Shown here in pieces: positions 15,825-26,477 of a stretch of DNA of 36,117 nt. Both the position numbers and the translations under genes were made by a program. The stretch is taken from positions 1 to 36,117 of the forward strand of contig JANXUU010000147.1 of assembly GCA_025356055.1 (NCBI GenBank). Direction: 5' to 3'. This DNA is from Sphingomonas sp. GTDB taxonomy: Bacteria; Pseudomonadota; Alphaproteobacteria; Sphingomonadales; Sphingomonadaceae. The notes below the pieces were generated by a model. It was not told where the DNA came from, searched no databases, and was given only the letters and a program-made list of their open reading frames with translations. How positions within the stretch are numbered: position 1 is the stretch's first letter; each line of letters begins with the position of its first letter.

Positions 15825-16118
15825 TCAGTGTTGCGAGCCGCCACCGGTGGTCGATGTGCTGGTCTTGATGTCCTCGACCTTCTTCACCGTGTCGGTGCGA
15901 TAGCGTTTGGTTGCGGCGGCGGCCGTCGCTCCGCTGTCACCGGGCAGCGCGCCGCCGGCGACGTAGACCGGGTCGGGGTTGATGATCTGGACCGCGGCGT
16001 TGAACTTGGCCGCTTCGCCGAAATGAACGTCTCCCGATCCGATCACGCTGTTGGCGGTGTTGCAGCCACCCAGCGCGAGCAGCGCGGCGAGCGGGATAAA
16101 GCGCTGGCTAGAGAACAT
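15825..16118 (-). CDS. Small lipoprotein in the CpaD position of the tad operon
   Basis: A 97-residue lipoprotein: MFSSQRFIPLAALLALGGCN carries lipobox ALGGC. It then has NPDPVYVAGGALPGDSGATA, KRYRTDTVKKVEDIKTSTST and a glycine/serine tail. It lies between cpaC and tadG, where Caulobacter-type loci encode CpaD, but CpaD proteins are about 200 residues, so it is half size. It could be a shortened CpaD or an unrelated pilotin-like lipoprotein. ATG at 16116-16118 is favoured over the one two codons upstream because AAGGA is then 8 bases away instead of 2. It overlaps the cpaC 3' end by 11 bases. Confidence 0.78.
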   Translation of the reverse strand: MFSSQRFIPLAALLALGGCNTANSVIGSGDVHFGEAAKFNAAVQIINPDPVYVAGGALPGDSGATAAAATKRYRTDTVKKVEDIKTSTSTTGGGSQH

Positions 16119-17682
16119 GGCCATAGTCCTTTTCGAAACCCAATGGCGCGCTTTGCGACAAGTTACCGCCGCTCGGCAGCGCTCCTAGCGGGCGCGCGGG
16201 CGGCGGGGGTGGCGGCGGGCCGGCCGGCGACGAGAAAGCCGCTCCCGCTGGCGGAACCCCGGTATCGGTCCGCCCGAGCAGCAGCAGGTCGGCCTCGTTC
16301 GGCGGGCCGACGCGATCGGTCGGCACCTTGAGCGTGGCCGCGCGAACGGGGCGCACCAGCCGCGGCGTGACGATGATCACCAGCTCGGTCTCCTCATGCT
16401 GGAAGCCGGTCGAGCGAAACAGGGTGCCGATGATCGGGATCGAGCCGAGGCCCGGCAGCTGCCGCACCGTGTCCTGGAAATCCTTGCGCAATAGCCCGGC
16501 CATCGCGAAGCTCTCGCCATCGCGCAGCTCGACCACGGTCCTCGCGCGCCGCGTCTGCAGGCCGGGGATGCGCAAGCCGTTAACTACGATCGACGCCGAC
16601 GGGTCGATCGAGCTGACTTCGGGCGCGACAACCAGGTTGATCACCCCGTCGGCGAGCACCGTCGGCGTGAACGCCAGGCTAACCCCGAACGGCTTGAACT
16701 CGACCGTGATATTGTTGCTGCTACCATTGCCGCCCCCGCTGCCACCCTGGCTGACGGGAATCGGGAATTCGCCGCCGGCAAGGAAGCTCGCGGTTTCGCC
16801 CGACAGCGCGACCAATGTCGGTTCGGCGAGGGTGGTCACGACGCCCTTGGTTTCGAGGAGGTCGAGTGTGGCGTTCAGGTTGGTCCCCAGCGCGTGGAAG
16901 GCGCGGGTGAAAATGCCGAAACTGCTGGTAATCGCGCCTAACGCGAGGACGCCGTTGCCGGGCGAGGTCGAGGTCGAGGTCGATCCGGTGAACGGGTCGG
17001 TGATGGTGTTGGTGACGTTGGCGCCGGGCAGCAGGCTCGCCCCGCCGCCACTGACCCCCTGGAACGCGCCGTGGTTGCTCTTGACGCCAAGGCCTAGGCC
17101 AATCTGCGCAAGTGCGGACCGCTTGACCTCGGAAAAGCGCACTTCGAGCATGACCTGCTGCGCGGCGCCGACCGACATCATGTTGATGACCTTGCCCGGG
17201 GCATAGGTCTCGGCGAGCTGGACCGCGCGATCGGCGGCGGGGCCGCTCGACACGATCCCGTCGAGCACCACCGAATCGTTGGAAATTCGCGCGCCGATGC
17301 GATCGTCGGGCATTATTTCCGACAGTTGGCGCTTGAGCGTGATTACATCGGGTCCGACGACGACGTCCATCACCGCGATCAAATTGCTCGACCGGTCGTA
17401 AAGCGTCAGGCTGGTAGTGCCGTTCTTCTTGCCGAGCACATAGAGCGAGCGGTTGGTCAGCGGCAGGACGTCGGCGATGTCCGGATTGCCGATTAGCGCC
17501 TTGGCGAACGGCCGATCGACGCGAAGCACCTGGCTTTTGTTGACCGGCACTTCGAGCTGCCCGGCGTGCAGGCCATCGGCCATGCTCATCGGCGCGATCT
17601 GCGCCTTGGCGGTTGACCCGATCACCCCAGCGCCGAGCGCTGTCGCGACCAGCAGCGCGGCTGCAAATTTGTTAAACGCCAT
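16108..17682 (-). CDS. cpaC: Outer-membrane secretin CpaC (RcpA)
   Basis: Forms the outer-membrane channel for the Flp pilus. The 524-residue product has a signal peptide (MAFNKFAAALLVATALGAG), the pilus N-domain (VPVNKSQVLRVDRPFAKALI near residue 46), a BON-like segment, and the secretin domain with VALSGETASFLAGGEFPIPV, FGVSLAFTPTVLADGVINLV and VVELRDGESFAMAGLL. It closes with ETELVIIVTPRLVRPV and a proline-rich C-terminus. ATG at 17680-17682 lies within the last codons of cpaB (11-base overlap), and its own end overlaps the next lipoprotein. Length is normal for CpaC. Confidence 0.96.
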   Translation of the reverse strand: MAFNKFAAALLVATALGAGVIGSTAKAQIAPMSMADGLHAGQLEVPVNKSQVLRVDRPFAKALIGNPDIADVLPLTNRSLYVLGKKNGTTSLTLYDRSSNLIAVMDVVVGPDVITLKRQLSEIMPDDRIGARISNDSVVLDGIVSSGPAADRAVQLAETYAPGKVINMMSVGAAQQVMLEVRFSEVKRSALAQIGLGLGVKSNHGAFQGVSGGGASLLPGANVTNTITDPFTGSTSTSTSPGNGVLALGAITSSFGIFTRAFHALGTNLNATLDLLETKGVVTTLAEPTLVALSGETASFLAGGEFPIPVSQGGSGGGNGSSNNITVEFKPFGVSLAFTPTVLADGVINLVVAPEVSSIDPSASIVVNGLRIPGLQTRRARTVVELRDGESFAMAGLLRKDFQDTVRQLPGLGSIPIIGTLFRSTGFQHEETELVIIVTPRLVRPVRAATLKVPTDRVGPPNEADLLLLGRTDTGVPPAGAAFSSPAGPPPPPPPARPLGALPSGGNLSQSAPLGFEKDYGHVL

Positions 17683-18595
17683 GACCCCCCACCTCGTAAC
17701 TGTCGCCCTTCGTCCCCCGGACGACTTCGATACTATCGGTCTTCTTGCTCGGCGGCGCCGTTTTTGTCGTCCGCACGACGGTGCGATGGATGACGTGCAC
17801 CGGCGCCCCAGTGCGCACCGGGACCGCGCCCAGCGACATCACGTTCGCGGCGGCCGCCATGCTGCCGAAGCGGTTGGTGCGCAGGTCGTTGAGGCTGACG
17901 GTCGCGGCGCCGATATTGTTCTGATCGTCGCCCGGCTTGCGCAGCACGAGGCTGAGCGATCCGACCTGCTGACCGAGCGCGAGTTTCTGCGCATCGAGCG
18001 GCGTGACCTCGAGCGTCGCGGTCTTGGCGACCGACGCCTTGCCATCCTCGCCCTTGGTGTCCTGGTCGATGGCGATGACGCGCGCATTCTGCAGCAGGAC
18101 ATCGGTCAGTTGCTCATTGCTGTTGTTCTGGCCGACGACGCTGCGAGTGACGAGCACATCGACTGAATCATTGGGTTGGACAAAGCCGCCGACACCCGAA
18201 ACGTCGTTGATACGGACTGCGGCGGCGCGCTTGCCATCGGGCAGCAGCGCGGCGATCGACGCAGCCTTGCCTTCGCCCGAAATCTTGCTGGCGAGGATCG
18301 GTTCGTTGACCTGGATTGGCAGGAGTGCCGCGCGGCGTTTGTCTTGCGGCAGAAGTGCGGCGAGCGATGGAAAACTTCCCGCGGGAATGCTGGTGTTGGG
18401 AAAATCGACGAAGCGAACTTTGTCAGGTGTAAGCTCAGTGCCATAGGCTAACGGAACCGCAGCGACCGCGACCCGAGTGCTTCCCGATAACTCGGCGCGA
18501 CGTTGCGAGCCAATCAGGAAGGAATTAGCGAGGAATACGGCAACCAGGCCAAGCACAAGTGCTACCCCCAATGCCATGACAGTCCGACGATTCAT
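17672..18595 (-). CDS. cpaB: Flp pilus assembly protein CpaB (RcpC), SAF domain
   Basis: First gene of the machinery part of the tad operon. The 307-residue product starts with one membrane helix (MNRRTVMALGVALVLGLVAV), followed by a SAF-type domain (VPLAYGTELTPDKVRFVDFP, then DKRRAALLPIQVNEPILASK) and the RcpC domain (AAAVRINDVSGVGGFVQPND, SVDVLVTRSVVG). It acts in the periplasm with the CpaC secretin. ATG at 18593-18595 is chosen over an in-frame ATG 39 bases upstream because the helix then lies at the normal position. The only Shine-Dalgarno-like element is a run of eight G (18603-18610), 7 bases from the ATG. A 192-base gap with a terminator separates it from the pilin genes. Confidence 0.93.
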   Translation of the reverse strand: MNRRTVMALGVALVLGLVAVFLANSFLIGSQRRAELSGSTRVAVAAVPLAYGTELTPDKVRFVDFPNTSIPAGSFPSLAALLPQDKRRAALLPIQVNEPILASKISGEGKAASIAALLPDGKRAAAVRINDVSGVGGFVQPNDSVDVLVTRSVVGQNNSNEQLTDVLLQNARVIAIDQDTKGEDGKASVAKTATLEVTPLDAQKLALGQQVGSLSLVLRKPGDDQNNIGAATVSLNDLRTNRFGSMAAAANVMSLGAVPVRTGAPVHVIHRTVVRTTKTAPPSKKTDSIEVVRGTKGDSYEVGGHGV

Positions 18596-18602
18596 TCCGA
18601 CG

Positions 18603-18610
18603 CCCCCCCC
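18603..18610 (-). repeat. Run of eight G just ahead of cpaB
   Basis: Eight consecutive C on the plus strand (G on the transcribed sense strand) lie 7 bases upstream of the chosen cpaB ATG and serve as its only ribosome-site-like element. Runs of this length can slip in replication. A length change would alter spacing, or the frame if the upstream ATG is used. Confidence 0.6.
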
Positions 18611-18787
18611 GACGCTGCTTAGAGCCCGTTTCACAATTCATGAGGTCCGCGACATTCACATTCGCTTTGTCTGCGAAGAGGCAATAAATACCTCACTTCC
18701 GTGCGACATAGACACCTGAGGCGGCATCAACGCGCGAGGTAAGCAATTTCGAAACGGCCTCTTAATACGACCCGCCAATTAGCGGAA

Positions 18788-18819
18788 GAAATTGGAGCCA
18801 CCTAGATGGTGGCTCCAAT
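18788..18819 (-). terminator. Hairpin after flp2: terminator or attenuator before cpaB
   Basis: A perfect 12-bp inverted repeat (ATTGGAGCCACC, 5-base loop, GGTGGCTCCAAT) starts 3 bases after the second pilin's stop codon. It is followed on the minus strand by TTCTTCC, a weak U-rich tract. It lies between the pilin genes and cpaB, which are transcribed the same way, so partial read-through would give more pilin than machinery mRNA. It could also protect the 3' end of the pilin mRNA. Confidence 0.8.
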
Positions 18820-18822
18820 CAA

Positions 18823-18999
18823 TCAGTTGCAGACTCGTGTACTTATACACGTTCCCGCATTAGTCATCGCGGTTGAGATGCTTACTCCCAAAGCAATCGC
18901 GGCGACGGCAATGCCGGTGCCGACGATGGCCAGGATCAGCGCATATTCCGCTGCGGCCGCTCCGGACTCATCCCGGAGCATATTGGTGAAAGTTTTCAT
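18823..18999 (-). CDS. flp2: Flp-type pilin, second copy
   Basis: A 58-residue prepilin, MKTFTNMLRDESG then AAAAEYALILAIVGTGIAVA. Cleavage after G13 gives a mature 45-residue subunit with glutamate at +5 and tyrosine at +6, the Flp signature, and one hydrophobic helix. The C-terminus has cysteines 51 and 57 (CISTRVC), enough for a small disulfide loop. A strong GGAGGAAG site lies 7 bases ahead of the ATG. It is a tandem duplicate of the adjacent upstream pilin, with a 20-base gap, and is followed at once by the hairpin at 18788-18819. Confidence 0.94.
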   Translation of the reverse strand: MKTFTNMLRDESGAAAAEYALILAIVGTGIAVAAIALGVSISTAMTNAGTCISTRVCN

Positions 19000-19019
19000 G
19001 GCTACTTCCTCCGAAAAGA

Positions 19020-19205
19020 TTACAGGCAACCAGACGCAATGTGGGTCGTGATGCAAGTGCCGGCTTTGTTCATTGCTGTGGAAATGCTGGCGCCCAGTGC
19101 GATCGCAGCAACAGCAATGCCCGTCCCGACGATCGCCAAAATGAGCGCATATTCCGCCGCCGCGGCGCCGGAGTCGTCCTTCAACATGGTGATAAAAGTC
19201 TTCAT
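19020..19205 (-). CDS. flp1: Flp-type pilin, first copy
   Basis: A 61-residue prepilin, MKTFITMLKDDSG then AAAAEYALILAIVGTGIAVA. The mature form after G13 is 48 residues, with glutamate at +5. It is nearly identical to the neighbouring pilin through the helix and differs at the C-terminus, where cysteines 51 and 60 (CITTHIASGC) frame a slightly longer loop. AAGGGA lies upstream of the ATG. As the first gene of the locus it should be the most strongly transcribed. Whether both copies enter the same fibre cannot be told. Confidence 0.94.
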   Translation of the reverse strand: MKTFITMLKDDSGAAAAEYALILAIVGTGIAVAAIALGASISTAMNKAGTCITTHIASGCL

Positions 19206-19552
19206 GGTTAAGTCCCTTACGATTATCTCGCGCCGCCCCCGGCACGAGTTGTCGCCGTGCGAATTTCACAAAGACTTCCGGTCACTTCAGGGCGACGGCC
19301 CCTCAACGCGGTGATCGCTAAGTCCCCTAACTCGCTAAGCTGCTTATTTAATCTGCTTTAATTAAACCGCTGTCAACTAATCCAGAATCGCTTTGGCGCG
19401 CCCGACGCCGCTGCCCTACCAACGCGCGAAGCTATTGATTGGAAATGCTAAAGACGGACGCCACACTCGTTGCCCTGCCGTAACTAGTATCATAGTGGGA
19501 CAGAAAGGCGTGGCCCGCGCGCAACAGGCTCCTGTCCAACGTTAACAGGTAT
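19206..19552. other. Leader and control region upstream of the pilins
   Basis: About 350 bases without a gene. It contains the candidate pilin promoter and, at its far end, the CtrA-like motif, both listed separately. The 19310-19380 part is AT-rich against a GC-rich background. No small gene with a ribosome site was seen on either strand. Confidence 0.6.
19348..19376 (-). promoter_or_regulatory. Candidate pilin promoter with TTAA boxes
   Basis: On the minus strand TTGACA (19371-19376) is a perfect -35 box. A 17-base spacer leads to GATTAA, with TTAAAT two bases further on, both modest -10 candidates. The spacer contains TTAATTAA, and another TTAA lies in the -10 area, with 6 bases between the outer two boxes. 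CtrA sites need TTAA-N7-TTAA, so this cluster is only suggestive. A transcript from here would have a ~140-base leader before flp1. Confidence 0.45.
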
Positions 19553-21357: not shown

Positions 21358-22710
21358 TCAAGCGAGCATGGAGGCAACATCGGAGGCGGCTGTTGGATAG
21401 GCGAACATCGTGTCGATAAGCGCTTCAGCCGTGAGTCCGCTTCGTATCGCTAAGGCGAACAAATTGATCACTTCGTCCGCGCTAGGCCCAACCAGATGCG
21501 CCCCGAGGATCATCCCGGTGTTCTCTTCTATGATCACCTTGTAGGCATAGATTGTTTCATTAAGACGACGGGCGGTAAACCACTTGGGAACCGACGCCGC
21601 GTTCACCTTAAATTGAAGACCCATCTTATGCGCGTCGGCTTCGCTGAGACCGACTGCGGCCATTGGCGGCACGGTAAAAACGACGCTTGGAACGCCACGA
21701 TAGTCGGTCCGAGCGTCCGCGCCATCAAGCATGTTCGCCGTGACGATTTTCGCGTCGTGGCTCGACACGGGCGTCAGGGGCGGTCCGCTCGCCGCCGCGT
21801 CCCCCGCTGCGTAGACGCGCGGGTTCGACACGCTTTGTAGTCCGGGGGTCAATCTGATCCGACCCTGATCGACAACAACATTACCTGCCGCGAGATTGAG
21901 CGTAGCAAGTTGCGGCGCGCGCCCGGCGGCGTGAATTACGAGATCGGCGGTGACTGCGATTTGCGCGCCTTGGCGCGAAGTCGCAAGCACCGTTAGCCCG
22001 TCTTGCGCGCGGGCGACGCTGTTGGCGGTGACGCCGGTATGGACCGCAATTCCCAGCGCATGGAACGAGGGCATTAGCCACTCGACCAGATTTGCATCGA
22101 ACTGGGGCAGCAGGCGCTCACCGCGCTGCAGGATTGTGACTTGCACCCCCGCTCTGGCCGCGAGGTGCGAGAATTCCGCGGCAATATAGCCGCCGCCGAT
22201 CAGCACGATGCGGGGCGGCAAGGATTCGAGTTTAAGGAAGTCGTCGCTGGTCGCAACCAACTCCTCGCCAGGGATCCCGAGCACAATCGGACTAGCGCCG
22301 GTCGCGATCAACATGTGGCGACCGACGAGCTCATTCCCCTCGACTATTATCTTGTCCGGAGCGATGAACCGCGCGAGGCCGTGAAAGGCGTCCACCCCGA
22401 GATCGGCATAATGTTCGACCTGTTTTGCCGGAATGGGGTCCGTGAAGCTTCGTTTAAACGCCATCAGCGCCGGCCAGTCGATGCGCAGTTCGCCTTTGAT
22501 GCCGTGCGACTGCATGCGACGCGCGGCATCGAGCGTCTCTTCGCCGCTGACCAGCATCTTTTTTGGGTCGCAGCCTCGAAGCGCACAGGTGCCCCCGAAC
22601 GGGCGGTGATCGATCACGGCGACGCGCCAGCCTCGTTCGCGCACACGAGCAATTGCAACTTGGGCCGCAGTGCCCGATCCGATCACGATCAGGTCGTAGG
22701 GTTCGCTCAT
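21358..22710 (-). CDS. MerA-like FAD/NAD(P)-dependent disulfide oxidoreductase lacking the C-terminal Cys pair
   Basis: A 450-residue flavoenzyme of the class I disulfide reductase family. It has an N-terminal FAD motif (DLIVIGSGTAAQVAIA), the redox disulfide C42/C47 (GGTCALRGCDPKK), an NAD(P) motif (RIVLIGGGYIAAEF), a second FAD segment (NPRVYAAGDAAASG) and a dimerisation domain. Near the C-terminus MFAYPTAASD has tyrosine where glutathione reductase has its catalytic histidine, as in mercuric reductase, but the chain ends SDVASMLA. There is no CC tail and no N-terminal HMA domain, so Hg(II) reduction as in classical MerA is doubtful. ATG at 22708-22710 is preceded by GGAGG at ideal distance. 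It is the last gene of the merT-led operon. The open frame extends much further upstream, but the ribosome site settles the start. Confidence 0.88.
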   Translation of the reverse strand: MSEPYDLIVIGSGTAAQVAIARVRERGWRVAVIDHRPFGGTCALRGCDPKKMLVSGEETLDAARRMQSHGIKGELRIDWPALMAFKRSFTDPIPAKQVEHYADLGVDAFHGLARFIAPDKIIVEGNELVGRHMLIATGASPIVLGIPGEELVATSDDFLKLESLPPRIVLIGGGYIAAEFSHLAARAGVQVTILQRGERLLPQFDANLVEWLMPSFHALGIAVHTGVTANSVARAQDGLTVLATSRQGAQIAVTADLVIHAAGRAPQLATLNLAAGNVVVDQGRIRLTPGLQSVSNPRVYAAGDAAASGPPLTPVSSHDAKIVTANMLDGADARTDYRGVPSVVFTVPPMAAVGLSEADAHKMGLQFKVNAASVPKWFTARRLNETIYAYKVIIEENTGMILGAHLVGPSADEVINLFALAIRSGLTAEALIDTMFAYPTAASDVASMLA

Positions 22711-22732: not shown

Positions 22733-22957
22733 TCAGCAGCAAGCCCTGCCCGAGGCATCGGCCTGGATCGGCGGGCAAGGAACACTGCCGAAGGAACAGA
22801 AGACGCAGCAATGGCCCGGGTTCGGACGGAGGACGACGCCGCATCCGGTGCAGTCGTAAAAAAACTGGCAAGCGTCGGTCGGCATGGTTTCAAGCGCCGA
22901 GTGCCCGCATTTGGGGCACGTGATCGTCGACTGCAGCACTGGCGCGGCGTCAGACAT
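22733..22957 (-). CDS. Small GDCCVxC-type heavy-metal-binding protein
   Basis: A 74-residue cysteine-rich cytoplasmic protein. It has a zinc-ribbon-like start (TITCPKCGHSALETMP), then DACQFFYDCTGCGVVLRPNP, the signature GHCCVFCSFGSVPCPPIQ and a terminal CC. It matches the GDCCVxC family with H replacing D. These small proteins occur with MerT-like transporters in sphingomonads and probably hold the metal between MerT and a reductase; this role is inferred from context. ATG at 22955-22957 lies inside the merT 3' end (8-base overlap), so translation is coupled. Alternative: a zinc-binding protein unrelated to mercury. Confidence 0.85.
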   Translation of the reverse strand: MSDAAPVLQSTITCPKCGHSALETMPTDACQFFYDCTGCGVVLRPNPGHCCVFCSFGSVPCPPIQADASGRACC

Positions 22958-23330
22958 AGAGATATCCCGCGATCAGCAAGACCACGCCCACGATCAGGCC
23001 GACAAGCGTCAGAAGACGCACTACCGGCGGCGTGCAAACCCCGTTTGGCCCGCACGTCGCGGCGTACCGCTGCTGCCGCCATAAATAGATCGCTCCCCCA
23101 GCCAGAGCCAGCGCAGCAAACACCAAAAGCAACGACCGGTTCGGCGCGGAAACGGACGCGACCCCACCCAGCCAGGCTGTGCCGAGCCCCAGGCTGATCA
23201 GCAGCAGCGGAAGGGCGCAACAGGCGGCCACGCCGAATGCGGCAGCGAGTCCGCCAAGCGTCAATAGTGCCGAAGCACTAGCCTTTGGCGGTGCTGGCGG
23301 ACGTGTCTCCACCGGTGAGATTTCGGCCAT
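22950..23330 (-). CDS. merT: MerT-type mercuric ion transport protein
   Basis: A 126-residue inner-membrane protein with three hydrophobic helices. Vicinal cysteines 37-38 lie in the first helix (FGVAACCALPLLL), and a second pair follows the second helix (ATCGPNGVCTPP), matching the cytosolic C-x5-C loop of MerT. MerT brings Hg(II) into the cytoplasm. No MerP gene is beside it. ATG at 23328-23330 gives 6 bases to AAGGAG; an adjacent ATG one codon upstream is equally in frame. It is the first gene of a three-gene operon driven by the MerR-type promoter at 23360-23390. Confidence 0.92.
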   Translation of the reverse strand: MAEISPVETRPPAPPKASASALLTLGGLAAAFGVAACCALPLLLISLGLGTAWLGGVASVSAPNRSLLLVFAALALAGGAIYLWRQQRYAATCGPNGVCTPPVVRLLTLVGLIVGVVLLIAGYLYV

Positions 23331-23359
23331 CATATGCTCCTTGAGATTGCTCGGCCGTG

Positions 23360-23390
23360 CTCTTAATGTCTGTAGCAACTACAGACTCAA
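23360..23390 (-). promoter_or_regulatory. MerR-type promoter/operator of the mer-like operon
   Basis: On the minus strand a -35 box TTGAGT (23385-23390) is followed by a 19-base spacer and a -10 box TAAGAG (23360-23365). The over-long 19-base spacer is the hallmark of MerR-activated promoters; the classic mer promoter has TTGACT-N19-TAAGGT. The dyad GTCTGTAGTTGCTACAGAC (23368-23386) has 8-bp arms and a 3-base centre and lies almost wholly in the spacer. merR starts 33 bases beyond it on the other strand. Confidence 0.9.
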
Positions 23391-23422: not shown

Positions 23423-23836
23423 TTGCCGTCCTTGACCATTGGCCAGCTGTCCCAGCACACCGGAGCCAATATCGAGACCATCCGCTACTATGAGCGGATC
23501 GGCTTGCTACCCGTGGCACTTCGGCAAGGCCGCTACCGATCCTACGACGTGAGCGATGTCGCGCGACTTGGCTTCGTTCGCCGATCGCGCGAACTCGGCT
23601 TCTCGATCAAGGAGGTGCGCGCCTTGCTCGACCTCGCCGGTGGCGGACACGAAAGTTGTGCCGAAGCCCGCGACCTCGCCGCCGTCCACCTGCGCGATGT
23701 GCGATCACGCATCGCCGATCTGCGCCAGATGGAGCGGACGCTGGCCAAGACCGTTCAAGCTTGCGATGCAGGAGATGACGCCGGATGCCCGCTTATCGAG
23801 ACATTGGGAGGCAGGCTGAACGCTCAATTGCGCTGA
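23423..23836 (+). CDS. merR: MerR-family metal-responsive regulator
   Basis: A 137-residue regulator transcribed divergently from merT. It has a winged helix (LTIGQLSQHTGANIETIRYY, then ERIGLLP), a dimerisation helix and the metal loop. Cysteines 79 (GGHESCAEA), 114 and 122 (ACDAGDDAGCPLI) align with the three Hg(II) ligands of MerR, but the last two are separated by seven residues, one fewer than in Tn501 MerR and equal to CueR. TTG at 23423-23425 is chosen because AAGGG lies 7 bases upstream and the protein then has normal length; earlier in-frame ATGs fall within the operator. It represses and activates the divergent operon by unwinding the 19-base spacer. Confidence 0.92.
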   Translation: MPSLTIGQLSQHTGANIETIRYYERIGLLPVALRQGRYRSYDVSDVARLGFVRRSRELGFSIKEVRALLDLAGGGHESCAEARDLAAVHLRDVRSRIADLRQMERTLAKTVQACDAGDDAGCPLIETLGGRLNAQLR

Positions 23837-23880: not shown

Positions 23881-25284
23881 CTAGACTAGCCCGGACAGCC
23901 TGAGCGCAACGCCAACTGCGGCGCAAGATGCCAAGGTCGGCAGCACACCTACCTTCAGGCGGAACATGGCGATGATCGCGGCCACGGTTAGCGCCAGCGC
24001 AACTGGATTCAGAGTCTGGAGCACAGGGACTTCGATCCGACCAAACGCGAAAGTCACCTCTTGCACCCGCCCAAATAAGGTGTGCAGCGCAAACCACACC
24101 CCCAGATTGAGAACCACGCCCACGACGGCCGCGGTGATCGCGGCAAGTGCTGCCGACAGAGCCTTGTTGCCCCGCATGGCCTCGATGAAGGGGGCGCCGA
24201 GAAATATCCAGAGAAAGCAGGGCACGAACGTCACCCACGTCGTGAGCAACCCGCCCAAGGTCGCCGCCAGCAACGGGGGCAAACCGGTGGCGTGCCGGAA
24301 CGCGCCCATGAACCCGACGAACTGCGTCACGATGATCAGCGGACCTGGCGTCGTTTCCGCCATGCCGAGCCCGTCAAGCATCTCGCCGGGGGCGAGCCAG
24401 TGATAGTGCTGCACTCCCTGCTGCGCGACATAGGCAAGGACGGCATAGGCGCCCCCGAAGGTCACCACCGCCATCTTCGAGAAAAACAGCGCGATCTCGG
24501 TGAACACGTTTCCGCGGCCATAGATCGCAAGCAGCGCCGCCGTCGGGGCAAGCCACAAGGCCAGCAAGGCTCCGCTGATCCGAAGCGACCAGCCCAGGCT
24601 TGCACGCGCATGGTCGGGGACATGCTCGCCAAGAGCCGTTTCGGCATCCGGAACGGTCTTGCTATCGCGCCCGCCATGTCCGCCACCAACGAAGAAAGCG
24701 GGGTGCCCGGCGGCACCACCGACGAATCCGACAATCGCGGCTGTCAGGACAATGAGGGGGAAAGCCGCGCCAAGAAAGAAGATTGCCGCGAAAGCCGCTA
24801 CGACGATGCTGCGCATGACATTGTTTTTGAGCGCGCGCGACCCGATGCGAATGACGGCCTGGAGCACGATCGCAAGCACTGCGGCTTTCAGGCCGAAGAA
24901 CAAGCCTTCCACGACGGGCACGTTGCCGACCAGGGCATAGATCCAGCTCAACACCATGATTGCGACGAGGCCCGGCAGCACGAACAATACGCCGGCGACG
25001 AGCCCACCCCTGGTCTTGTGGAGCAACCACCCGACGTAGATTGCGAGCTGCTGCGCCTCGGGCCCTGGAAGCAGCATGCAATAGTTGAGCGCGTGGAGGA
25101 ACCGTTCCTCGCCGATCCAGCGCTTTTCTTCGACGAGGATGCGGTGCATCACCGCGATCTGCCCGGCGGGGCCGCCAAAGCTCAAGGCTGCGATTTTCGC
25201 CCAAACCCGCACAGCCTCGCCGAACGCAATGCCATGCTCGCGCGGGCTTCGGTCGAGCGAGTCCGCATTGGCGCCAACGGTCAT
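23881..25284 (-). CDS. chrA: Chromate transporter ChrA, two-domain
   Basis: A 467-residue inner-membrane protein of the CHR superfamily with two homologous halves. The first has LSFGGPAGQIAVMHRI and LPGPEAQQLAIYVGW; the second has VTFGGAYAVLAYVAQQ and TTPGPLIIVTQFVGF. A ~60-residue hydrophilic linker (HGGRDSKTVPDAETALG) joins them. It exports chromate, probably by the membrane potential. ATG at 25282-25284 follows an AGGA element by 9 bases and gives the family length; the frame is open further upstream without support. It converges with merR (45 bases between stops). No chrB regulator is beside it, so its control is unclear. Confidence 0.94.
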   Translation of the reverse strand: MTVGANADSLDRSPREHGIAFGEAVRVWAKIAALSFGGPAGQIAVMHRILVEEKRWIGEERFLHALNYCMLLPGPEAQQLAIYVGWLLHKTRGGLVAGVLFVLPGLVAIMVLSWIYALVGNVPVVEGLFFGLKAAVLAIVLQAVIRIGSRALKNNVMRSIVVAAFAAIFFLGAAFPLIVLTAAIVGFVGGAAGHPAFFVGGGHGGRDSKTVPDAETALGEHVPDHARASLGWSLRISGALLALWLAPTAALLAIYGRGNVFTEIALFFSKMAVVTFGGAYAVLAYVAQQGVQHYHWLAPGEMLDGLGMAETTPGPLIIVTQFVGFMGAFRHATGLPPLLAATLGGLLTTWVTFVPCFLWIFLGAPFIEAMRGNKALSAALAAITAAVVGVVLNLGVWFALHTLFGRVQEVTFAFGRIEVPVLQTLNPVALALTVAAIIAMFRLKVGVLPTLASCAAVGVALRLSGLV

Positions 25285-25571
25285 CGCAATTATTCCTACT
25301 GACTCGTGAAGTGGGTCGACTGGCGAAGCAGCGCGGCGCCTGTCAAGCCATTCGCCAGCCCTGTTTTCATCGCAATTGTGCGAACTCTGATAGAACCGCA
25401 GCAACGATTGGCCGGACCAAGGCGTTGTTCCATTCTGGAAAATCAAGCAGCCGATTTTTAGCAGTTTCCGTCTTGCCGCGGCACTCCGCCACGTTTTAAT
25501 CGATGATGTATCGCGCAGCCGCTCGCTACGGGAAAGCGGACATCGGCCGGCGCTGACCGTTGGAGAAGAAA

Positions 25572-26477
25572 ATGCTGAAAAATGTATTGATCGCCGCGTC
25601 ATTGAGCCTGACAGTTGCCGCCCCCGCCTGGGCCGCACCCGATTGGGCGAAGGTCGACAAGGCGCTCGGCCGGCCCGGATTGATGCAAGCCGGTGGCGTT
25701 CATCGCTACGGGTTTCCGCGCTCCGACCTTAAGGTCACGCTCGATGGCGTCGCGATCAAACCGGCGCTGGCGCTCGGCTCCTGGGCCGCTTTTCACGAAA
25801 TGGGCGATCAGGCGATGGTGATGGGCGATCTTGTTCTCACTCAAGACGAGGTGAACCCGGTCATGAGCCGACTGCTCGCGGGCGGGTTCACGATCACGGC
25901 GCTGCACAACCATCTGCTCCGCTCGGCGCCCGCCACGATGTATATGCACATCTCGGCGCACGGCGATCCAGTGAGGCTGGCGCAAGCCCTGCGCGAGGGG
26001 CTGAGCCTCAGCCGCACTCCGCTCGCTTCTCCGTCCCGGAATCCTCAGCCGCCTTCGGCCGGCGCGGGCAGTTCCTCGCCCCTCGCTCTGGACACGGCCG
26101 GACTCGACCGGATCATGGGTGCGAAGGGCAAGGCGAACGGCGGAGTCTATCAGTTCAGCTATCCCCGAGCGGAAAACGTCATGGACGACGGAATGGTCAC
26201 GCCCGCCTCGATGGGCACCGCGACGGCGATCAATTTCCAGCCCACGGGTGGAGGCAAGGCCGCAATCACCGGCGATTTCGTACTGATCGCAAGCGAGGCC
26301 GATCCGGTCATGCGAGCGCTGCGCGCGAGCGGGATCGAAGTGACGGCGCTTCACAACCACATGCTGCGCGACGAGCCCCGACTGTTCTTCATGCACTTCT
26401 GGGCGAACCGCGATGCGGCGACGCTTGCCAGAGGTCTGCGCGCCGCGCTGGACAAGATGAACCTGCAACGGAGCTGA
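25572..26477 (+). CDS. Secreted protein with two DUF1259 (LppY/LpqO-like) domains
   Basis: A 301-residue exported protein with a signal peptide (MLKNVLIAASLSLTVAAPAW, cleavage near AWA-AP). It contains two copies of the DUF1259 domain at residues ~25-145 and ~175-300. Each ends with the same elements: ITALHNHLLRSAPATMYMHI in the first and VTALHNHMLRDEPRLFFMHF in the second. The HNH and MH residues look like metal ligands, though the family has no established activity. ATG at 25572 follows GGAG by 6 bases; a TTG 12 bases upstream is in frame but would destroy that spacing. It is followed after 10 bases by the beta-propeller gene, so the two form an operon divergent from chrA. Confidence 0.88.
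   Translation: MLKNVLIAASLSLTVAAPAWAAPDWAKVDKALGRPGLMQAGGVHRYGFPRSDLKVTLDGVAIKPALALGSWAAFHEMGDQAMVMGDLVLTQDEVNPVMSRLLAGGFTITALHNHLLRSAPATMYMHISAHGDPVRLAQALREGLSLSRTPLASPSRNPQPPSAGAGSSSPLALDTAGLDRIMGAKGKANGGVYQFSYPRAENVMDDGMVTPASMGTATAINFQPTGGGKAAITGDFVLIASEADPVMRALRASGIEVTALHNHMLRDEPRLFFMHFWANRDAATLARGLRAALDKMNLQRS

What the first reader, a model, noticed from the sequence alone, without database searches (positions are those of the whole stretch)
21358..22710. mer-like operon with a MerA-type flavoenzyme that lacks the metal-binding C-terminal Cys pair
The redox pair C42/C47 and the MerA-like tyrosine in FAYPTAASD are present, but the chain stops at SDVASMLA. The vicinal cysteines that hand Hg(II) to the active site in MerA are absent, as is the N-terminal HMA domain. 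The GDCCVxC protein encoded next door ends in CC and has many cysteines, so it could supply the missing metal-delivery function in trans. That would be a split mercuric reductase, or a different metal or thiol reductase using MerT for entry.
Basis: partly seen in the sequence, partly recalled or inferred. Interest (0 to 1): 0.7.

Follow-up and report, generated by a model that had tools for sequence, protein, structure and literature searches.

The report
Short mercury reductase with helper protein
A bacterial mercury-resistance operon uses a shortened reductase of a kind already shown to detoxify mercury, and in the related loci examined this enzyme sits beside either a small cysteine-rich protein or a full-length mercury reductase, but not beside both.

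Summary
Window 21358-22710(-) encodes a 450-residue FAD/NAD(P) reductase with redox pair C42/C47 and Tyr438, but no N-terminal HMA domain and no C-terminal Cys pair, behind MerR, MerT and a GDCCVxC protein ending in CC. The short end is a family trait, not a truncation. The nearest solved relative, GbsMerA (PDB 8k40, 39% identical), has the same architecture and reduces Hg(II) alone in vitro (PMC10587081). A strictly "split" enzyme is therefore not needed; this is most likely the operon's mercuric reductase. The window's genome has no MerA over the curated cut-off. Not found in print: of 96 loci with this reductase type, 49 carry GDCCVxC without classical MerA, 39 classical MerA without GDCCVxC, 0 both, 8 neither, with at least 12 label changes on the tree. 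GDCCVxC also stays apart from MerA elsewhere (0 of 30 MerA loci; 0 of 60 GDCCVxC loci). But it usually occurs without such a reductase (59 of 60 loci), and the reductase-less Tn5563 module often sensitised hosts to Hg. Best reading: GDCCVxC is a MerT-linked Hg(II)-handling protein, helpful but not obligatory. Delivery to the reductase is inferred, not shown.

The parts
21358..22710 (-). short (GbsMerA-type) mercuric-reductase-like flavoenzyme, 450 aa; no NmerA domain, no C-terminal Cys pair
22570..22587 (-). codons of the redox-active pair C42-ALRG-C47 (followed by Asp48, equivalent of GbsMerA Asp47)
   Evidence: invariant in A2; role by homology to PMC10587081
21397..21399 (-). codon of Tyr438, equivalent of GbsMerA Tyr437, whose Phe mutant lost activity
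   Evidence: mutant from PMC10587081
22733..22957 (-). GDCCVxC-family protein, 74 aa, nine core Cys (C14, C17, C30, C36, C39, C50, C51, C54, C61) plus CC tail; predicted zinc-ribbon-like core
22950..23330 (-). MerT-like membrane protein with a CC pair near its N-terminal hydrophobic stretch and a Cys-x5-Cys loop; overlaps the GDCCVxC gene by 8 bases
23360..23390 (-). MerR-type promoter/operator TTGAGT-N19-TAAGAG with dyad CTGTAG-N3-CTACAG, reading towards merT
   Evidence: such an element in 15 of 26 distinct MerR/MerT intergenic regions of GDCCVxC-bearing loci, 1 of 520 shuffles
23423..23836 (+). MerR-like regulator; start codon uncertain (the ORF opens at 23357 but the promoter covers 23360-23390). 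Three Cys in the metal-site positions (SCAEA; ACDAGDDAGCPL)
   Evidence: roles of the Cys positions recalled

Best explanation
This is a compact mercury-resistance operon (MerR | MerT - GDCCVxC - short reductase). MerR senses Hg(II) and switches on a 19-bp-spacer promoter. MerT brings Hg(II) into the cytoplasm. The short GbsMerA-type flavoenzyme reduces Hg(II) to Hg(0) with NADPH, FAD and C42/C47; Asp48 and Tyr438 of the partner subunit do the metal handling that the C-terminal Cys pair does in classical MerA. The GDCCVxC protein is a MerT-linked, zinc-ribbon-like cytosolic Hg(II)-binding protein. It buffers incoming Hg(II) and probably passes it on, improving but not enabling the reduction. 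Shown by homology to a tested enzyme: fold, architecture, Tyr dependence and Hg(II) reduction without a helper. Shown here: operon layout, promoter, recurrent pairing, and no locus with intact GDCCVxC and classical MerA together. Inferred: that this enzyme's substrate is Hg(II), that GDCCVxC binds Hg(II), and that it hands Hg(II) to the reductase.
For: Best solved relative by sequence is 8k40 (39% identity), a mercuric reductase without NmerA and without the C-terminal Cys pair: 474.7 umol/min/mg with HgCl2, Y437F inactive, protects E. coli (PMC10587081). The same key residues are invariant in A2 (20 rows). The operon has MerT and MerR and a MerR-type promoter. No protein of the window's genome reaches the MerA cut-off (completeness 97.4%). 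Context: 49 GDCCVxC only, 39 MerA only, 0 both, 8 neither of 96. At 90% identity, 55 clusters: 25 GDCCVxC, 25 MerA, 2 MerA+neither, 3 neither. The GDCCVxC label needs at least 12 changes on the reductase tree, 5 forced by strongly supported branches. Twelve further loci outside the 96: 3 GDCCVxC, 4 MerA, 0 both, 5 neither. GDCCVxC and MerA are also apart without the short reductase: 0 of 30 MerA loci at up to 1.5 kb, 0 of 60 GDCCVxC loci at up to 6 kb. MerT- or MerF-like neighbour in 20 of those 60.
Against: GbsMerA is only 39% identical, and I know of no closer tested enzyme. GbsMerA also uses Ag(I), GSSG and Mn, so Hg specificity is not certain here. MerR (116.7 of 150.85 bits) and MerT (43.2 of 150) miss the NCBIfam equivalog cut-offs. 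GDCCVxC is usually without this reductase (59 of 60 loci), and 40 of 60 have no MerT/MerF-like neighbour: some sit by genes that read as Cu-ATPases, CcdA, arsenite efflux or rhodanese (by eye), so its role may be broader than Hg. The Tn5563-type merRTP cassette carries GDCCVxC, and the Tn5563a merRTP module lowered the Hg MIC in six strains and raised it in two (PMC4447125), so GDCCVxC alone, if present there, does not protect well. Of 96 loci 8 have neither partner (3 of them cut by contig ends), as do 5 of 12 further ones. The independent-pair test reached only p 0.0625, with 5 pairs.
Confidence: 0.65

Rival explanations
1. Obligate split mercuric reductase: the GDCCVxC protein docks on the flavoenzyme dimer and its CC tail is required to hand Hg(II) to C42/C47, as the C-terminal pair does in MerA.
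For: Pairing in 49 of 96 loci, none with classical MerA, with repeated switches; CC tail in 27 of 32 distinct partners; several gene orders among the 49 (33 upstream within 150 bases, 4 downstream within 150, 5 downstream beyond a MerR gene, 7 other).
Against: GbsMerA works alone in vitro (PMC10587081). The CC tail is also common without the reductase, 41 of 61. No frame carries both a reductase and a GDCCVxC match in the three sets scanned. Reductases with neither partner exist. No reductase column clearly tracks the partner (best p 4e-5 among some 450 columns times residues).
Confidence: 0.1
2. The GDCCVxC protein has no role with the reductase: it travels with MerT/MerF importers as an independent Hg sink, MerT partner or thiol-repair protein, and the reductase happens to share the operon.
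For: Only 1 of 60 GDCCVxC loci from the window's class has the reductase, 20 have a MerT/MerF-like neighbour. The Tn5563-type cassette has merRTP-GDCCVxC with no reductase gene beside it.
Against: Among loci with the reductase the pairing is frequent, and changes of context are mostly between GDCCVxC and MerA.
Confidence: 0.2
3. The flavoenzyme mainly reduces something else (Ag(I), glutathione disulfide or another thiol or metal), and the operon handles another soft metal.
For: GbsMerA has half its Hg rate with Ag(I), and activity with GSSG (PMC10587081). The window sequence scores almost as well against glutathione reductase NF004776 (298 bits) as against MerA (315), both below cut-off. Some relatives sit in no recognisable metal context.
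Against: MerR/MerT/MerR-type promoter context; no His-x4-Glu pair (Tyr438 and Ser443 instead); Hg was GbsMerA's best substrate of those tested.
Confidence: 0.12
4. Decayed MerA that lost its tail and is inactive.
For: Absence of the canonical metal-binding tail.
Against: The same end is kept in diverse relatives and the catalytic residues are invariant in A2; GbsMerA is active.
Confidence: 0.02

Closest known systems
GbsMerA, Gelidibacter salicanalis (PDB 8k40/8k41; PMC10587081)
   Same: About 450 aa, CALRGCD, Tyr before PT..SD, no NmerA, no C-terminal Cys pair, next to MerT/P
   Different: 39% identical; ArsR instead of MerR; its paper names the downstream gene only as hypothetical, so whether it has GDCCVxC is unknown to me. 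Hymenobacter and Pontibacter plasmids show ArsR, MerTP, this reductase type and GDCCVxC together
Classical MerA (Tn501 type; TIGR02053)
   Same: Fold family, redox CxxxxC, the Tyr near the C-terminus
   Different: No C-terminal vicinal Cys, no NmerA, below curated cut-off; Gln97 where Tn501 has Tyr100 (via GbsMerA Val96)
RclA (Cu(II) reductase) and hypothiocyanous acid reductase MerA
   Same: Same flavoenzyme family; RclA lacks the C-terminal Cys pair too (PMC10587081)
   Different: 194 of 740 and 203 of 650 bits; the window enzyme has Tyr-x4-Ser in place of RclA's His-x4-Glu
GDCCVxC domain-containing (seleno)protein, NF041374
   Same: The small neighbour is a clear member (102.9 bits, cut-off 40)
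   Different: GHCC instead of GDCC; no paper on the family's function found
Tn5563 merRTP module (P. alcaligenes pRA2 and relatives)
   Same: MerR and MerT with GDCCVxC next to them
   Different: Has MerP, no reductase gene beside it; described as a partial or defective mer module, and GDCCVxC is not named in the passages I read (PMC4785139, PMC4447125)

Membership tests
classical MerA | redox-active Cys pair CxxxxC | tested here: met
   C42/C47, invariant in A2
classical MerA | vicinal Cys pair at the C-terminus (screened for by PMC8261052, passages) | tested here: not met
   chain ends SDVASMLA; no Cys in the last 14 residues of 95 of 96 reductases of this type, window included, L181 disrupted
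classical MerA | conserved C-terminal-domain Tyr (Tn501 Tyr441) | tested here: met
   Tyr438 by alignment to GbsMerA Tyr437
classical MerA | NCBIfam TIGR02053 cut-off | tested here: not met
   315.4 of 454.45 bits
GbsMerA-type short mercuric reductase | full-length alignment, CxxxxCD, Tyr-P-T-x-x-S-D end, no NmerA, no tail | tested here: met
GbsMerA-type short mercuric reductase | Hg(II)-dependent NADPH oxidation | not testable with these tools
   GbsMerA assayed in PMC10587081; the window enzyme not
RclA / HOSCN reductase | family cut-off and His-x4-Glu pair | tested here: not met
   Tyr438 and Ser443
GDCCVxC (NF041374) | family cut-off | tested here: met
   102.9 of 40 bits
zinc ribbon | zinc-ribbon fold | tested here: inconclusive
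   model pLDDT 80.8; best Foldseek E 0.58, best VIA Z 3.2; several of the weak matches are zinc-binding domains by title or recall; Pfam Zn_ribbon_TFIIB 18.4 of 22 bits
split mercuric reductase | physical complex and Hg(II) hand-over | not testable with these tools
   no complex prediction on hand; only indirect context evidence
MerT | Pfam MerT gathering score | tested here: met
   41.8 of 32.9 bits; NCBIfam MerT equivalog not met, 43.2 of 150

The most novel reading that the evidence does not exclude
Short MerA-type reductases use interchangeable Hg(II)-delivery partners acting in trans: either a GDCCVxC zinc-ribbon protein whose CC tail and C50/C51 stand in for NmerA and the C-terminal Cys pair, or a neighbouring classical MerA. 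GDCCVxC would then be an unrecognised cytosolic Hg(II) chaperone fed by MerT/MerF-type importers, and 'defective' mer modules such as Tn5563 would be import-plus-chaperone cassettes that rely on a host reductase.
Probability: 0.3. Interest if true: 0.75.

Novelty: new variant of a known kind. Interest (0 to 1): 0.48.

Why it matters
Surveys that define MerA by the C-terminal Cys pair (such as PMC8261052, which screened for it) would pass over these enzymes, so genomes like this one would be scored as having no mercuric reductase. The either/or pairing with GDCCVxC or classical MerA gives a concrete, cheap test of what a widespread Cys-rich protein family does (over cut-off in 60 of 385 sampled genomes of the window's class), and of how Hg(II) reaches a reductase that has no tail of its own.

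Tried and rejected
Truncation or frameshift artefact: rejected, the end is conserved in the family. RclA- or HOSCN-type reductase: rejected by score and motif. A different metal read from MerR: the Cys-x7-Cys spacing (MerR of L067 and L074 has x8) looked like a lead, but 26 of 37 MerR genes scored in MerA-type loci have x7 with the upstream Cys also present, as do 34 of 43 in GDCCVxC-type loci, so it does not separate them. CC tail as a reductase-specific feature: not supported (27 of 32 v 41 of 61, Fisher p 0.09). Reductase columns that track the partner: nothing convincing. Natural fusion of reductase and GDCCVxC: none in the loci scanned; the one MerT+GDCCVxC double hit, L181, lies in a disrupted operon. 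Selenocysteine: two proteins have an in-frame TGA at the C30 position, and both genomes have SelA over cut-off (G208, G298); a third with TGA at C51 (G122) has no SelA over cut-off, so that one is doubtful. Negative genome-wide relation of GDCCVxC and MerA: wrong, 11 of 34 MerA genomes also have GDCCVxC, more than expected (p 0.01); they are apart as operons only. Literature: no paper in the held library names GDCCVxC (the two hits are papillomavirus papers, judged from the listing); GbsMerA appears in one paper; searches showed, by listing, no paper on this operon type other than the GbsMerA one; of the papers listed I opened the GbsMerA paper, PMC8261052, PMC4785139, PMC4447125 and PMC12195606 (passages only except the first; the last held nothing relevant).

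Exception looked at: L189 (classical MerA locus) carries a degraded GDCCVxC-like stretch 1.5 kb away on the other strand, 35 bits, below my 60-bit cut; it was counted as MerA only.

L069 was dropped from the 96 because its reductase is split in two frames (neither half reaches 500 bits). L140, L181, L150 and L216 were left out of the tree and the clusters. In the sample of the window's class 60 of 65 GDCCVxC places over cut-off were fetched at up to 6 kb; the other 5 are the window and G229, G367, G344, G007. Of those 60 loci, L098, L107 and L125 hold weaker hits of my MerA profile (297, 299 and 76 bits) without a CC end, and two more hits lie under 30 bits; I take them for other flavoenzymes or chance. 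Classical MerA in the 96 loci was called at 100 bits, so fragments count (L061 and L141 partial; L170 ends without the Cys pair).

Full report
Observation. The reductase at 21358-22710(-) is as described: C42/C47 in GGTCALRGCDPKK, Tyr438 in FAYPTAASD, no HMA domain and no Cys tail. The operon on the minus strand is MerT (22950-23330), GDCCVxC (22733-22957, overlapping MerT by 8 bases) and the reductase, 22 bases further on. A divergent MerR-like gene lies on the + strand. Between them is TTGAGT-N19-TAAGAG around the dyad CTGTAG-N3-CTACAG, the layout of MerR-type promoters (layout recalled; the long 19-bp spacer is also named in the listing). The same kind of element was found in 15 of 26 distinct MerR/MerT intergenic regions of GDCCVxC-bearing loci, and in 1 of 520 shuffles.

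What the enzyme is. By NCBIfam it is below the cut-offs of MerA (315 of 454 bits), glutathione reductase, RclA and hypothiocyanous acid reductase. The best solved relative by sequence is 8k40 (E 1.9e-105, next 4e-65), GbsMerA, 39% identical over 446 residues. Its paper (text parts 1-3 of 5 read) reports the same two absences, Hg(II)-dependent NADPH oxidation by the purified enzyme at 474.7 umol/min/mg, half that rate with Ag(I), some with GSSG and Mn, total loss in Y437F, and protection of E. coli. The window enzyme has the equivalents Asp48 and Tyr438. Of the 96 reductases of the locus table, 95 have no Cys in the last 14 residues; the other, L181, is disrupted. PMC8261052 (passages) screened putative MerA for the vicinal Cys pair, so such enzymes would be left out of that survey.

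The window's genome. No protein reaches the MerA cut-off; the three best score 315-346 bits, the window enzyme among them, in an assembly of 97.4% completeness. There is one GDCCVxC gene.

Survey of the pairing. A scan of genome contigs with 20 aligned relatives gave 80 loci. With 15 plasmid loci and the window these make 96, annotated with profiles that I built from annotated plasmid genes. Result: 49 with GDCCVxC and no classical MerA, 39 with classical MerA and no GDCCVxC, 0 with both, 8 with neither; 33, 30, 0 and 5 if at least 3.5 kb is held on each side (Fisher p 2.6e-19 and 1.8e-14, not corrected for kinship). At 90% identity 92 of these reductases form 55 clusters: 25 GDCCVxC, 25 MerA, 2 MerA+neither, 3 neither; at 80%, 2 clusters hold both contexts, so close relatives have changed partner. 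On a quick tree of 92 reductases and 4 outgroup rows the GDCCVxC label needs at least 12 changes, 5 forced by strongly supported branches; 5 independent pairs on such branches went the opposite way in 4.8 of 5 on average, p 0.0625, which is not significant alone.

The pairing seen from the small protein. In 385 genomes of the window's class, 60 have GDCCVxC over cut-off and 34 have MerA over cut-off. Of 60 GDCCVxC places fetched, 0 have a classical MerA within the stretch held (three weaker flavoenzyme hits, 76-299 bits, lack a CC end), 1 has the short reductase, and 20 have a MerT- or MerF-like gene within 1.5 kb. Of 30 MerA loci, 0 have GDCCVxC within up to 1.5 kb. At genome level the two co-occur more than expected (11 of 34, p 0.01), so the separation is one of operons. 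A Tn3-family element with merR-merT-merP-GDCCVxC and no reductase gene beside it is common on plasmids: 151 of 72,556 records hold at least 80% of the cassette in one place, among the listed ones a 32,743-base P. alcaligenes plasmid, NC_005909, which I take to be pRA2, the source of Tn5563 (name recalled). In PMC4447125 (passages) the merRTP module of Tn5563a lowered the Hg MIC in six strains and raised it in two. I did not check that that copy carries GDCCVxC.

What the small protein may be. Nine core Cys are invariant in an alignment of 87 proteins. A model from 80 sequences has pLDDT 80.8, with only weak structure matches, several of them zinc-binding domains. In two SelA-bearing genomes the C30 position is an in-frame TGA, which suggests that this Cys is reactive.

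Mechanism. The safest reading is a working short mercuric reductase behind MerT, with GDCCVxC as a Hg(II)-handling protein of the import side. The either/or pattern with classical MerA is what would be expected if both supply cytosolic Hg(II) handling, but it would also arise if two operon types simply evolved apart. Only biochemistry can tell these apart.

Noticed in passing
window 23881-25260 (-): Chromate transporter (PF02417, two stretches, 231 bits) directly beyond merR, so the mer operon sits in a small metal-resistance cluster.
   Followed up: partly
window 16108-19269 (-): Tad/Flp pilus genes: secretin, RcpC/CpaB and two near-identical pilin-like reading frames in tandem (about 18823-19269; one scanned, weak Flp_Fap match below cut-off).
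   Followed up: no
window 25560-26477 (+): Protein with two DUF1259 (PF07485) stretches beside the chromate transporter.
   Followed up: no
L077 1213-1425 and NC_005909: GDCCVxC gene inside the Tn5563-type merRTP module, not named in the passages of the two papers I looked at.
   Followed up: partly
L124, L132 (G298, G208): GDCCVxC proteins with an in-frame TGA at the C30 position, downstream of a frame that reads like MoaE (by eye), in genomes with SelA.
   Followed up: partly
L112, L118, L119, L131, L135: GDCCVxC gene 12 bases behind a gene that reads as a heavy-metal P-type ATPase, by eye only.
   Followed up: no
L189 8840-9021 (-): Degraded GDCCVxC-like stretch in a locus that has a classical MerA and the short reductase.
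   Followed up: yes
L139, L141, L142, L144, L145, L147, L152: The same gene order MerR | MerC-MerT-MerP-MerA-MerB-like-short reductase in seven records of different names, suggesting a mobile mer cassette.
   Followed up: no
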